This document shows positions 28,520-37,183 of a stretch of DNA of 64,000 bases, piece after piece (within the stretch, counting starts at the first letter, position 1; each line of letters starts with the position of its first letter). The notes under the pieces are model-generated. The model did not search any database. It saw only the letters and a list, made by a program, of their open reading frames with translations, and had not been told where the DNA came from. Source of the DNA: an uncultured Actinomycetes bacterium (GTDB lineage Bacteria > Actinomycetota > Thermoleophilia > Miltoncostaeales > Miltoncostaeaceae); the NCBI GenBank assembly GCA_903896045.1, contig CAITWD010000018.1:62001-126000 (forward strand), written 5' to 3'. The position numbers were made by a program, and so were the translations under genes.

Positions 28520-28593
28520 CGGGGCGTGGCGCAGCCTGGTAGCGCACCCGGCTGGGGGCCGGGCGGTCGGAGGTTCAAATCCTCTCGCCCCGA
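28520..28593 (+). tRNA. tRNA-Pro (anticodon GGG)
   Basis: Cloverleaf CGGGGCG...CGCCCCG-A, D-loop GCAGCCTGGTAGCGC, anticodon stem CCCGG/CCGGG with loop CTGGGGG, T-arm GGAGGTTCAAATCCTC; CCA not encoded. Confidence 0.93.
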
Positions 28594-28600
28594 TGAAGGT

Positions 28601-29170
28601 ATGTCGGTAAGTCCCGACATTGCGCGGCGTCTGCGGTGGGTGCCCAATGCACTGACCATCGGGCGCCTTATTGCGCTTCCCGTGTTGGTGTGGATGCTCA
28701 CCCGTGTGCATGGAACGACCGATGCGGTTGTGGCGTGGACATTTGCCGCGGTCGCCATTACCGATCTGATTGACGGCTTTCTTGCACGGTTGCTGGGCGC
28801 TGAAACTGCATTTGGCCGCCTTGCTGATCCATTTGCCGATCGGATGCTCGTGGCGGTGGGGTTGATCGGGTTGATTGCAATTGACCGGTTGCCACCGGTC
28901 GGACCACTGATTGTCTTTGGGCGCGATGTGATCGTTGTGGGGGCAGTGATTGCCTTGCGCCACAGTGGGCTCGATGTGCGCGTGAATCTTTTGGGCAAGT
29001 TGTCGTCACTGTTGGTCATGGCATCGATTTCGCTGGCACTTTTGAGCACGGCGCAATGGATTGATGTGCTGTTTTGGGGTGCGGTGGTGCTCTCGATCGT
29101 CACCTTTGTGCAGTACGCCTGGACCGCAATTGTCGCGGCGCGGGGGAGGGGTATCTCAACCCATACTTGA
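28601..29170 (+). CDS. CDP-alcohol phosphatidyltransferase family (PgsA-like)
   Basis: Signature ALTIGRLIALP..., DLIDGFLARLLGAETAFGRLADPFADR. Confidence 0.9.
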   Translation: MSVSPDIARRLRWVPNALTIGRLIALPVLVWMLTRVHGTTDAVVAWTFAAVAITDLIDGFLARLLGAETAFGRLADPFADRMLVAVGLIGLIAIDRLPPVGPLIVFGRDVIVVGAVIALRHSGLDVRVNLLGKLSSLLVMASISLALLSTAQWIDVLFWGAVVLSIVTFVQYAWTAIVAARGRGISTHT

Positions 29171-29226: not shown

Positions 29227-29502
29227 ATGGAGTTGGAACCGCTTCCCGATCTCGCTGCAGTTCCCGATGCAGAGCTCAAACAGCTGATCGAGGATCTCAC
29301 TCAAGCTGAACGTGAGGTTTCGATGCAGCGCCGTGTCCTGCATGGGCGCATCGACATGCTGCGCCAGGAACTGGTGCACCGTTTGACGGCCAAAGACGAG
29401 GGCGCGCTGTCGGTGGTTGATGTGGATGCCCTGGCCCGCATTTTGGCCGGACGTCTTCCTGATGTGGACCGCCTGCAAGACCCACCGAAAAGCGCGGGAT
29501 AG
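29227..29502 (+). CDS. RsiG-like helical protein (putative c-di-GMP-responsive anti-sigma factor)
   Basis: 91 aa; helix LKQLIEDLTQAEREVSMQRRVLHGRIDMLRQELVHRL with spacing E28-x3-S32-x2-R35-x3-H39-x3-D43. Confidence 0.6.
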   Translation: MELEPLPDLAAVPDAELKQLIEDLTQAEREVSMQRRVLHGRIDMLRQELVHRLTAKDEGALSVVDVDALARILAGRLPDVDRLQDPPKSAG

Positions 29503-29507
29503 CCCAC

Positions 29508-29963
29508 GTGCGTTGTCCTGAATGCGATCAACCCCAAAGTCCCGCGCATCGCTTTTGCAGCAATTGCGGATCCCCGCTGCATCCCGATGGCGTGACGATT
29601 GAATCGACGGGGCCATTTGCGCTGCATGATGGCTCCAGCTCGGGGTATGGCGATGCATCCAGGAGTGATGGACCCGTGCTGGCGATTCGGGGTGGTGGGC
29701 CGGCAGGGGTGGTCTTTGCGATCCCGCGCACGGGTGCAATAACGATCGGTCGTTCGCCAAAATCCGACATCTTTCTCGACGATGTCACGGTGAGTCGCAA
29801 TCACTCCACGATTGAGCGCGGACCCGATGGGGTCACGCTGCACGATCTGGGCAGCCTGAATGGCACCTATGTCAATCGGCGTCGCATTCGTGAGTACGAG
29901 GTACTCCAGCACGGCGATGAGCTGCAAATCGGCAAGTTCCGACTGGTGTTTCTGGATCAATGA
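29508..29963 (+). CDS. FHA domain protein with N-terminal zinc ribbon (GarA-like position)
   Basis: CPECDQPQSPAHRFCSNCG; FHA core TIGRSPKSDIFLDDVTVSRNHSTIERGPDGVTLHDLGSLNGTYVN. Confidence 0.92.
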   Translation: MRCPECDQPQSPAHRFCSNCGSPLHPDGVTIESTGPFALHDGSSSGYGDASRSDGPVLAIRGGGPAGVVFAIPRTGAITIGRSPKSDIFLDDVTVSRNHSTIERGPDGVTLHDLGSLNGTYVNRRRIREYEVLQHGDELQIGKFRLVFLDQ

Positions 29964-30679
29964 CGACCGTTTCTGAAAACCCAGTGGTGCGCGAACAGGA
30001 TGGCCCGACGCTGTCGATCGGCGCCATCTGCGATGCGCTCAAAGTCGACTTTCCGACTATCTCGATCTCGAAAATCCGCTACCTCGAAGATCAAAAATTG
30101 GTGTCGCCAAAGCGCACCCCAGGCGGCTATCGACTCTTTTCCTCGAACGATCTTGAGCGGCTGCGCACCATTCTGCGCTTGCAGCGTGATGAGTTTCTCC
30201 CCTTGCGGGTCATTCGTGCCGAACTCGATGCCCAACCCGCGGGGACCTTCCCGGCGACGCCGGCACAAAAGCATGCGACGCGTCCCCAATTCGGCGAACC
30301 ATTGCCATCGCGGACCTATGGGATTGATGAAGTCTTGGAGCGCACTGGGGCATCGGCAGCACTCGTGCGGGATCTCGAGGAATATGGCCTGATTTCTGGC
30401 GCCAATGGCCTCGATGAGGTCTCCTTGCAGGTCATTCAGGCCGCTGCAGAGCTTGCGCAATTCGGAGTGCAGCCGCGTCATCTTCGCCAATTTCACACCG
30501 CTGCTGAGCGCGAGGCCGGATTGCTGGAGCAGCTGCTCACGACAGGCCTTCGGTCGCGAAACCCTGATCGTCGGGCCGAGGCGATGACGGCACTCGAGGA
30601 GCTCACCGGTCTTGTCGGCAATATGCGCCAGCTCTTGTTGGTCGCCGAATTGCGGGCAATCGCCGATAAGGCCAGTTAA
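29960..30679 (+). CDS. MerR family regulator (FtsR-like)
   Basis: LSIGAICDALKVDFPTISISKIRYLEDQKLVSPKRTPGGYRLFSSNDLERLRTILRLQRDEFLPL; overlaps FHA gene by 4 nt. Confidence 0.88.
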   Translation: MTTVSENPVVREQDGPTLSIGAICDALKVDFPTISISKIRYLEDQKLVSPKRTPGGYRLFSSNDLERLRTILRLQRDEFLPLRVIRAELDAQPAGTFPATPAQKHATRPQFGEPLPSRTYGIDEVLERTGASAALVRDLEEYGLISGANGLDEVSLQVIQAAAELAQFGVQPRHLRQFHTAAEREAGLLEQLLTTGLRSRNPDRRAEAMTALEELTGLVGNMRQLLLVAELRAIADKAS

Positions 30680-31212
30680 TGGACTTTGATCAGGTCATTG
30701 GCAAGGTTCCGAACCATCCAAAGCCCGGGATCTTGTTCTTTGATGTGATGCCCATGTTTCGCGACCCCGCTGCGCTTGACGCGGCGATCTCGCGCATCGT
30801 GGAGTGGGCACGTCCACGTAAGGTGGATGTGGTGATTGGGGCAGAGTCACGCGGATTCATTCTTGGCGGTGCAGTCGCCCAGCACTTGGGTGCAGGTTTT
30901 GTCACTGCACGCAAGCCGGGAAAGCTCCCAGGGGCCACCGTGAGCCGTGAGTACGCACTCGAATACGGCACCGATCGGCTCGAGGTACAAGCAGACGCGA
31001 TTCGGCCGGGCCAACGCGTGCTGATTCACGACGACCTTCTTGCCACCGGTGGCACAGGTGCGGCCAAGATCGAGCTTGTTGAGTCGCTTGGCGGAATTGT
31101 TGTCGGTACGGCGTTCGTCGTTGAATTGACCTTTCTTGGGGGCCGAGAGCGGCTCACCCCACACGAGGTGTTCTCGCTGGTCAAGTACCACAGCGATGCT
31201 GTCCCAGCGTGA
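30679..31212 (+). CDS. apt: Adenine phosphoribosyltransferase
   Basis: VPNHPKPGILFFDVMPMFRDP, GAESRGFILGGAVAQHLGAGFV, VLIHDDLLATGGTGAA. Confidence 0.93.
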   Translation: MDFDQVIGKVPNHPKPGILFFDVMPMFRDPAALDAAISRIVEWARPRKVDVVIGAESRGFILGGAVAQHLGAGFVTARKPGKLPGATVSREYALEYGTDRLEVQADAIRPGQRVLIHDDLLATGGTGAAKIELVESLGGIVVGTAFVVELTFLGGRERLTPHEVFSLVKYHSDAVPA

Positions 31213-35104: not shown

Positions 35105-37183
35105 CTATTTGCCCGTCACGGTGACGTGCTGGATGTAGGTCTTGCCATGTTTGATGGCAATCTTTGCGATGGCATTCAAGGAGTGGTGCTTTGCCTTCCT
35201 TAAGAGGGCCTTCCCCTTTGCGTTCAAGACAATCAGCCATTGACCTGAATGGGTGAAGCGCACTGAACCAATGACAATCTTCTTTGTGGTGGTCAGGGTC
35301 CAGGTTCCGCTACAGGTTCTCGAACAGGAAATTTGTCCCGATGCTTTGCCATGCGAGGAGATGATGGATGTTGAGATGTTTACCCCCTGGATCACATCGG
35401 CAACCGCTCCTGCCTGCGCTCCGTAGTTGCCTGTACCGGTGAAGCTCCACGGGTCCTGGTAGGTACCCGCATTTATGTGGCTGGTGCTCGAGACATCAAT
35501 CGTTCCCACCGTCGAGCCCGTTTCGCCATTGACACCAGCGATGGTGTAAGTGGCGATGTGGGGGTTACCGTTATAGCTCGCCGAGTATGGGTTGACGGTG
35601 ACATTTGCGGATGCGCGAGTAATCGTGCCGGTCCCATCCACGTAGGAGATCGAGTAGTTACTCGATACATCTGCTCCGCTTGATCCGGTTCCTGCACCAT
35701 TGCGAATCACACATGTGGCAACTGTTGAGGTTGCAGTCAAGACATTTGCACTGTTGAACGCTTGGGTGCAGTCAAGATGGTCAGTGTTCTGGCCATCGCT
35801 TTGGAGCAACGCGCCACTTGTCAGCGTTGGGACACCATTCGATGAGGTTGTGCCATCGTAGGTTTTTGTGTCGCTTGCTGCGGTGATGGTGAGTGCGGCA
35901 GGGGTGTATTGCGAGCCTTGGGTTTGGACAGCACCAATGTCACACGGACTTGGGGACGAGACGCTGTATCCCCGTTGATCAGGAAGACCGCATATCTGAA
36001 TAGAGCCGACTGTCGTGCCGAAAGGGATCGCACCGATAGCTGGGCTTCCTAAGGCCGGGAGGATGGTCTGAGTCGGGCCGCCGTTTTTGGCAAGAGTTCC
36101 TAGGGAGGCATCGAGCGTGGGGCTTGAGTTGACAGACCCAGTTGCTGTAAAGCCGCATGTGCTGTCATCGGAGATGTTGTAGCCGAGGTCGGTCATGGTG
36201 CCCTGGCAATTACCCGAGAGGGCACTACTGCCGGCCACTATGTCACCTAAAAGGCTAATCGTGCCGCCGGTTTTTTTGATCCCACCGCCACCTGTGCCAG
36301 TTGTTGAGTTATTTAAAACGGTTGATGAGGTAATGCTGACTGACCCACCTGAACTCAAGATTGCGGCCCCAGTAGTAGCTGTGTTCTGCCAGAACGTCGA
36401 CGAGTAGATGACCAATTGACCTTGGTTGTAGATTGCTCCGCCGTTGTTCGAGGTGGAATTGCTTGAGAACGTTGAGCGGTCTATGGACATGTATCCGTTG
36501 CTCGAGTTCTGAAGATTCCCCAAGCAGCAGGTGCTGTTCCCATTGAAGGTTGAGTTGACGAGTTCCACCCGACCGTCATTGAAGATGACCGAGCCCGCTC
36601 TGCCCCTTGTACTATTACTCGAGACACTTGAACTCTGAAGATTCAAAGTGCCGGAATTGACGATCGCTGCACCAGAAGAGCTGCTCGCCTGTTGAGTGAT
36701 AGCTGAGCTGACAACAGATACTGATGCTCCGACGCCAACGGTGATTGAGGACCCAACGGTCGTGCTAGTGGTAAGTCCGTGCTGTATCCCCAATCCAACA
36801 AGTGTGACTGAAACACCATTCCCCGACAGTGAAAAGATCGTGGTCGCGCCGTTGCCGTCAATCACCGTATTTGCTTGCCCATTTCCGGTGATGGTGTAGG
36901 TGCCCGGGTTGCTGATCACCATTGGAGTGCTTGATGCAGGCAGAATTGGTGTGCTTGAGGTGCAGTTCACCGAGAAAGTGATGTCACCACCACCATTGGC
37001 ATTCGCCTGACTCACTGCATAGGGGAGTGAACCTGTATCGATGACGCTGCCACTACAGTTTGTGACCACATAGCTCGTTGCGGCAGATGCGATGCCAGAA
37101 AACACAACACATCCGGAAATAACTGCGGCAAACGCGATCAGACTGATCCACCAACGATGCAGCATAGTAAGCCCTTTGGTCAT
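35105..37183 (-). CDS. Secreted surface/adhesin-like protein: right-handed beta-helix (choice-of-anchor/polymorphic-OMP-like) plus MBG/YDG-type repeats
   Basis: Signal peptide MLHRWWISLIAFAAVISGCVVFSGIASAA; repeats NNGGAIYNQGQLVIYSSTFWQNTATTGAAILSS; NGGPTQTILPALGSPAIGAIP; ITAASDTKTYDGTTS; true start 37183 or 37165. Confidence 0.82.
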   Translation of the reverse strand: MTKGLTMLHRWWISLIAFAAVISGCVVFSGIASAATSYVVTNCSGSVIDTGSLPYAVSQANANGGGDITFSVNCTSSTPILPASSTPMVISNPGTYTITGNGQANTVIDGNGATTIFSLSGNGVSVTLVGLGIQHGLTTSTTVGSSITVGVGASVSVVSSAITQQASSSSGAAIVNSGTLNLQSSSVSSNSTRGRAGSVIFNDGRVELVNSTFNGNSTCCLGNLQNSSNGYMSIDRSTFSSNSTSNNGGAIYNQGQLVIYSSTFWQNTATTGAAILSSGGSVSITSSTVLNNSTTGTGGGGIKKTGGTISLLGDIVAGSSALSGNCQGTMTDLGYNISDDSTCGFTATGSVNSSPTLDASLGTLAKNGGPTQTILPALGSPAIGAIPFGTTVGSIQICGLPDQRGYSVSSPSPCDIGAVQTQGSQYTPAALTITAASDTKTYDGTTSSNGVPTLTSGALLQSDGQNTDHLDCTQAFNSANVLTATSTVATCVIRNGAGTGSSGADVSSNYSISYVDGTGTITRASANVTVNPYSASYNGNPHIATYTIAGVNGETGSTVGTIDVSSTSHINAGTYQDPWSFTGTGNYGAQAGAVADVIQGVNISTSIISSHGKASGQISCSRTCSGTWTLTTTKKIVIGSVRFTHSGQWLIVLNAKGKALLRKAKHHSLNAIAKIAIKHGKTYIQHVTVTGK

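What the first reader, a model, noticed from the sequence alone, without database searches (positions are those of the whole stretch)
29227..29502. 91-aa RsiG-like protein with one c-di-GMP-type signature next to FHA and MerR genes
The helix contains E28-x3-S32-x2-R35-x3-H39-x3-D43 (nt 29308-29355). This matches the spacing of the RsiG signature E(X)3S(X)2R(X)3Q(X)3D, with His instead of Gln. RsiG is the Streptomyces c-di-GMP-binding anti-sigma factor for WhiG and carries two motif copies; a deep-branching actinobacterial (Rubrobacter) version is described as a one-motif protein acting as a homodimer. This protein is short, helical and has a single motif. It sits 5 bp upstream of a zinc-ribbon FHA gene and the MerR (FtsR-like) gene. 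If it is an anti-sigma factor, c-di-GMP may gate a WhiG/FliA-like sigma factor encoded outside this window.
Basis: partly seen in the sequence, partly recalled or inferred. Interest (0 to 1): 0.72.

Follow-up and report, generated by a model that had tools for sequence, protein, structure and literature searches.

The report
Single-motif RsiG anti-sigma factor
The gene encodes a small, already-described type of bacterial switch protein (RsiG) that is expected to hold back a specialised RNA-polymerase sigma factor (WhiG) when the signal molecule c-di-GMP is plentiful; the one surprise is that this bacterium has lost the pili that the switch is linked to in relatives yet keeps both halves of the switch in good order.

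Summary
Window 29227-29502 encodes a 91-aa protein with one E-x3-S-x2-R-x3-H-x3-D motif. It matches Pfam RsiG (PF22802, 64.2 bits, cut-off 27) and the Rubrobacter RsiG crystal structures. The genome has one WhiG-type sigma factor (281 bits, cut-off 190) with the residues that contact c-di-GMP, plus two GGEEF cyclases and an HD-GYP protein.

Single-motif RsiGs, including His-motif ones that bind c-di-GMP, are published from this class (Thermoleophilia). H is the norm there. rsiG sits directly upstream of the FHA (garA/odhI position) and ftsR genes across the class.

New here: (1) in the family, RsiG and WhiG are largely present or absent together; (2) three same-genus genomes carry a perfect TAAT-N16-GCCGATCA promoter at pilB; (3) this genome has no type IV pilus assembly ATPase or platform protein and no flagellar export gate, yet rsiG and whiG remain under strong purifying selection. 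The output of the switch here is therefore unknown. c-di-GMP binding, dimerisation and sigma binding are inferred, not shown.

In passing: four related genomes encode an RsbW-like ATPase fused to an RsiG-like helix.

The parts
29227..29502 (+). rsiG, 91-aa single-motif RsiG anti-sigma factor
   Evidence: ORF; PF22802 64.2 bits, cut-off 27; PDB 7lq2/7lq3/7lq4
29308..29355 (+). c-di-GMP motif E28-x3-S32-x2-R35-x3-H39-x3-D43
   Evidence: read directly; E, S, R, H invariant in 25 aligned relatives, last position D or E
29266..29388 (+). long helix (residues 14-54) expected to pair antiparallel with a second subunit
   Evidence: AlphaFold2 monomer, pLDDT about 95 over most of this part; aligned to the Rubrobacter coiled-coil helix
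29214..29219 (+). ribosome-binding site AAGGAG, 7 nt before the ATG
   Evidence: read directly
28526..29170 (+). pgsA-like CDP-alcohol phosphatidyltransferase, conserved upstream neighbour in part of the class
   Evidence: PF01066 E 5.7e-27; adjacent in 45 of 74 named loci by homology to this copy
29508..29963 (+). zinc-ribbon FHA protein at the position of garA/odhI
   Evidence: PF00498 E 7e-22; best NCBIfam hit OdhI, below its cut-off; next to rsiG in 78 of 79 named loci
29960..30679 (+). ftsR, MerR-type regulator
   Evidence: NF050798 224 bits, cut-off 150; downstream of rsiG in 77 of 77 named loci with room
30679..31212 (+). phosphoribosyltransferase (apt-like), next gene of the cluster
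   Evidence: overlapping ORF; found next in most loci; name from the reading of the sequence, no family search run

Best explanation
The gene is rsiG of the single-motif type. Two copies of the 91-aa protein pair as an antiparallel two-helix coiled coil (inferred). Each helix offers one E-S-R-H-D motif, and together they hold a c-di-GMP dimer (inferred). The loaded dimer grips the sigma2 and sigma4 domains of the genome's one WhiG-type sigma factor and keeps it off RNA polymerase; when c-di-GMP falls, WhiG is released (inferred from the solved Rubrobacter complex). In the same genus WhiG very probably transcribes the type IV pilus operon pilB-pilT-pilC. This genome has lost the pilus but keeps the switch under selection, so here WhiG must serve other promoters, perhaps including c-di-GMP enzymes.
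For: Family match far above cut-off and match to Rubrobacter RsiG structures over residues 8-79. Motif invariant in relatives. With own position + 31 = Rubrobacter number, the WhiG-contacting residues D39, R72 and R77 named in PMC8325347 are conserved as D8, R41 and R46, and K60 is R29. One WhiG in the genome, 281 bits, nearest solved relative S. venezuelae WhiG E 1.6e-76, with c-di-GMP contacts K57/G61/R62 conserved as K47/G51/R52 and Rubrobacter R43 as R37. Signal supply: two GGEEF cyclases and one degenerate-GGDEF-HD-GYP protein. RsiG and WhiG occur together: 17 of 42 family genomes have both, 21 neither (one of these has a WhiG fragment), 2 and 2 only one, all in genomes 87% complete or less. 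Perfect TAAT-N16-GCCGATCA ahead of pilB in three same-genus genomes, with the boxes conserved while the spacer diverges. rsiG dN/dS 0.06-0.10 and whiG 0.04 against same-genus genomes.
Against: No binding, dimerisation or transcription data exist for this protein. Fold search with the monomer found nothing significant, which is uninformative for a single helix. The protein lacks about 30 N-terminal residues present in Rubrobacter RsiG and lacks the glycine-rich N-terminal linker described for single-motif RsiGs. The N47 contact in WhiG is T41 here. In this genome flagellar-type promoters with N15 spacing are no more common than a reversed control (91 against 81), and none with at most 1 mismatch and any spacing of 12-20 lies upstream of a gene in the 412 kb scanned. 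So WhiG targets here are not identified.
Confidence: 0.88

Rival explanations
1. It is an RsiG homologue that still binds WhiG but has lost c-di-GMP control, acting as a constitutive anti-sigma factor or a relic after pilus loss.
For: The pilus output is gone from this genome: no T2SSE, no T2SSF. No WhiG-type promoter was recognised in the part scanned.
Against: All five c-di-GMP-contact positions and the WhiG contacts are intact. rsiG is the best-conserved protein of its operon (92% to the nearest same-genus copy against 66-71% for pgsA, FHA and ftsR). Cyclases with intact GGEEF are present.
Confidence: 0.07
2. The protein works with the FHA protein or FtsR (cell division, 2-oxoglutarate node) rather than with WhiG, given its fixed place in their operon.
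For: rsiG is next to FHA in 78 of 79 loci and upstream of ftsR in 77 of 77. The garA/odhI-ftsR pair is conserved across Actinobacteria (PMC6683498).
Against: Across the family RsiG goes with WhiG, and all 20 genomes of one genus lack both. The residues kept are those that touch c-di-GMP and WhiG.
Confidence: 0.04
3. It is an unrelated coiled-coil protein with a chance motif.
For: Short helical proteins often give weak coiled-coil hits (lower hits).
Against: PF22802 E 9e-18; the same gene at the same place across the class.
Confidence: 0.01

Closest known systems
Single-motif RsiG of Rubrobacter radiotolerans (PDB 7lq2, 7lq3, 7lq4) and of Conexibacter woesei (PMC8325347)
   Same: One E-S-R-[Q/H]-D motif in one long helix; WhiG-contacting D, R, R conserved; genome has a cognate WhiG; H at the fourth position as in C. 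woesei, whose protein binds c-di-GMP
   Different: About 30 residues shorter at the N-terminus than the Rubrobacter protein, no glycine-rich N-terminal linker; organism has no type IV pilus, the output proposed for Rubrobacter
Twin-motif RsiG of Streptomyces venezuelae (PDB 6pfj, 6pfv)
   Same: Same motif and same kind of sigma partner
   Different: Half the length, one motif, expected to work as a homodimer; no spore development known here
FliA/WhiG sigma factors (TIGR02479)
   Same: The genome's WhiG scores 281 bits and keeps K-x3-G-R in sigma2
   Different: Neither flagellar export gate nor type IV pilus genes in this genome

Membership tests
single-motif RsiG | Match to the RsiG family profile | tested here: met
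   PF22802 64.2 bits, cut-off 27, residues 4-73 of 91; 14 control genomes silent
single-motif RsiG | E(X)3S(X)2R(X)3[Q/H](X)3D motif | tested here: met
   E28 S32 R35 H39 D43; invariant in relatives apart from D/E at the last position
single-motif RsiG | Only one motif copy in a small protein | tested here: met
   One copy in 91 aa; no upstream start in the 98-codon open frame
single-motif RsiG | Cognate WhiG in the same genome with c-di-GMP-contact residues | tested here: met
   G000 C17 WhiG, 281 bits; K47, G51, R52
single-motif RsiG | Residues that contact WhiG (D39, K60, R72, R77 of Rubrobacter) | tested here: met
   D8, R29, R41, R46 by the alignment with residue numbers from PMC8325347; K60 is replaced by R
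single-motif RsiG | WhiG sigma4 contacts (T237, R239, K243, K218, E240 of Rubrobacter) | not tested
single-motif RsiG | Glycine-rich regions linking the helix to both extensions | tested here: not met
   No glycine before residue 40; single glycines at 59 and 75. A descriptive feature of the five published members, not known to be needed
single-motif RsiG | Antiparallel homodimer | not testable with these tools
   Only monomers can be predicted; the monomer has helix 14-54
single-motif RsiG | Binds c-di-GMP and, with it, WhiG | not testable with these tools
   Needs biochemistry
twin-motif RsiG | Two motif copies on two helices of one chain | tested here: not met
   One motif only
FliA/WhiG sigma factor (the partner) | TIGR02479 above its cut-off | tested here: met
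   281.2 bits, cut-off 189.6; the other sigmas in the genome score at most 115

The most novel reading that the evidence does not exclude
The RsiG-WhiG switch has outlived its pilus output and now controls something that is neither type IV pili nor flagella, possibly the c-di-GMP enzymes themselves. Two of three of them have GCCGAT with a partial -35 at 16 bp just upstream (TAAC-N16-GCCGATTG and TTGA-N16-GCCGATCT), a weak signal found after the fact. The organism would be a natural case of a c-di-GMP switch being re-used.
Probability: 0.55. Interest if true: 0.5.

Novelty: new member of a known kind. Interest (0 to 1): 0.33.

Why it matters
The protein itself adds one more member to a described family, in a class where it was already known. 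It matters a little more because this genome separates the switch from its documented output: same-genus genomes have pilB-pilT-pilC under a WhiG-type promoter, and this one has no pilus but a well-kept rsiG and whiG. It also shows that single-motif RsiG is a core, fixed-position gene in Thermoleophilia (235 of 299 genomes), much broader than the five proteins in the published set.

Tried and rejected
Fold search of the predicted monomer against the PDB: nothing below E 2.5, uninformative for one helix. N12-N20 scan of 412 kb of this genome: no site with at most 1 mismatch upstream of a gene. Sites upstream of the c-di-GMP genes: two have GCCGAT with a poor -35, reported only as a hint, because about 9% of genes have GCCGAT upstream. 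Search for the pilus deletion site (alaS-ruvX-mltG-aroE neighbourhood): not in the stretches fetched. NCBIfam has no RsiG model that matched.

Full report
What is there. Window 29227-29502 (+) is a 91-aa ORF with a good ribosome-binding site and no other in-frame start upstream. The family test is clear: Pfam RsiG (PF22802) 64.2 bits against a cut-off of 27, and the Rubrobacter RsiG chains 7lq2, 7lq3 and 7lq4 are the best sequence matches in the PDB, followed by Streptomyces RsiG 6pfj. It is the only RsiG in this 1.67 Mb, 99.85% complete genome.

Which organism. The nearest named relatives are Thermoleophilia MAGs Chersky_126 and Chersky_388 (RsiG 90-92% identical), then Miltoncostaeaceae and Miltoncostaea MAGs. 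RsiG sequences of Chersky_126 and Chersky_388 agree with those of the same-genus genomes G173 and G140, and the Miltoncostaea sp. and Miltoncostaeaceae records agree with same-family genomes G164 and G055. The window therefore belongs to class Thermoleophilia, most likely family Miltoncostaeaceae (inference).

Partner and signal. The genome has one FliA/WhiG sigma on another contig (281 bits, cut-off 189.6). Its closest solved relative is S. venezuelae WhiG. The three WhiG residues that touch c-di-GMP in the solved complexes (K57, G61, R62 in Streptomyces; K53, G57, R58 in Rubrobacter) are K47, G51 and R52 here. On the RsiG side, own numbering plus 31 gives Rubrobacter numbering: motif residues E59, S63, R66, Q70, D74 are E28, S32, R35, H39, D43, and the WhiG contacts D39, R72, R77 are D8, R41, R46, with K60 as R29. 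Three GGDEF proteins are present: a PAS-GAF-GGDEF and a TPR-GGDEF protein with intact GGEEF, and a degenerate GGDEF joined to HD-GYP.

His for Gln is not an oddity. PMC8325347 reports that H is frequent at this position, and that the H-type RsiG of Conexibacter woesei, also Thermoleophilia, binds c-di-GMP with Kd 25 uM, tightening about 15-fold with WhiG. In loci found here with the Pfam profile, 44 of 46 carry H.

Distribution and neighbourhood. RsiG is in 235 of 299 sampled genomes of the class. The cluster rsiG-FHA-ftsR is fixed: FHA directly after rsiG in 78 of 79 named loci with room, ftsR in 77 of 77. The garA/odhI-ftsR pair is known to be conserved in Actinobacteria with a variable upstream gene (PMC6683498). 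In Thermoleophilia that upstream gene is rsiG, which the RsiG paper does not mention. In the family of 42 genomes, 17 have both RsiG and WhiG above cut-off, 21 have neither (20 of them one genus, so one loss event; the 21st has a WhiG fragment at a contig end), and 4 incomplete genomes have one of the two.

Output. In Rubrobacter the switch is proposed to control type IV pili. In the three other genomes of this genus, a perfect TAAT-N16-GCCGATCA lies just ahead of pilB of the pilB-pilT-pilC operon; the two boxes are conserved while the spacer diverges, although TAA also forms the stop codon of the upstream aroE-like gene. Weaker sites with the same spacing precede pilB in two other genera of the family. 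This genome, however, has no T2SSE and no T2SSF, where the three same-genus genomes have 3-4 and 2 hits respectively, the T2SSE hits at several places; assembly gaps are an unlikely cause. It also lacks FlhA, as does the rest of the genus. Yet rsiG (dN/dS 0.06-0.10) and whiG (0.04) show strong purifying selection, and rsiG is 92% identical to the nearest same-genus copy while its neighbours are 66-71%. So the switch is kept for something else. I could not name it: no site with at most 1 mismatch was found upstream of genes in 412 kb, and the weak sites ahead of two c-di-GMP genes are a hint only.

Mechanism. By homology to the solved (RsiG)2-(c-di-GMP)2-WhiG complex: homodimer, one motif per subunit, c-di-GMP dimer at the interface, WhiG sigma2 and sigma4 held away from RNA polymerase. 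Shown here: the family, the motif, the partner and the contact residues. Inferred: binding, dimer, sequestration. The AlphaFold2 monomer (mean pLDDT 85) gives helix 14-54 followed by short C-terminal helices, which fits but does not test the dimer. Differences from Rubrobacter RsiG: about 30 fewer N-terminal residues and no glycine-rich N-terminal linker.

Verdict. A correct and well-argued reading by the first stage; an ordinary member of a published family, with one point of real interest, the loss of the pilus output while the switch is kept.

Noticed in passing
L066 (G119; reverse-strand frame at about 1408-2130), L070:455-1069 (-), L069:916-1665 (+), L068:1474-2379 (-): Four genomes of the family encode an RsbW-like ATPase (HATPase_c_2) fused at its C-terminus to an RsiG-like helix. 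The copy in L066 has an intact E-S-R-H-D motif; in L070 the last D is A. PF22802 is above cut-off only in L066 (33 bits) and just below it in the others. A c-di-GMP-sensing anti-sigma kinase would be a new architecture; no paper in the library holds both RsiG and RsbW.
   Followed up: partly
L063:1204-1746 (-) and L064:705-1259 (+): One genus of the family (G078, G122) has, besides the usual single-motif RsiG, a 180-184 aa RsiG-like protein with two RsiG helices whose motifs are both degenerate; in L063 it lies next to a PspA-like gene. Twin-helix forms were not reported from Thermoleophilia in PMC8325347.
   Followed up: partly
all loci L017-L062 and L119-L198: rsiG occupies the slot directly upstream of the garA/odhI-type FHA gene and ftsR throughout Thermoleophilia, so a c-di-GMP anti-sigma factor is probably co-transcribed with a cell-division regulator.
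   Followed up: yes
G000 whole genome: Type IV pilus assembly ATPase and platform protein are absent here although the three same-genus genomes have them; the deletion site was not found in the stretches read.
   Followed up: partly
L013:9442-16473 (-): A predicted 2343-aa secreted protein is encoded convergently next to the PAS-GAF-GGDEF cyclase gene; a possible surface protein under c-di-GMP control.
   Followed up: no
window 35105-37183 (-): A 692-aa protein with a signal-like N-terminus and only a weak, below-cut-off match to a Chlamydia outer-membrane repeat.
   Followed up: no
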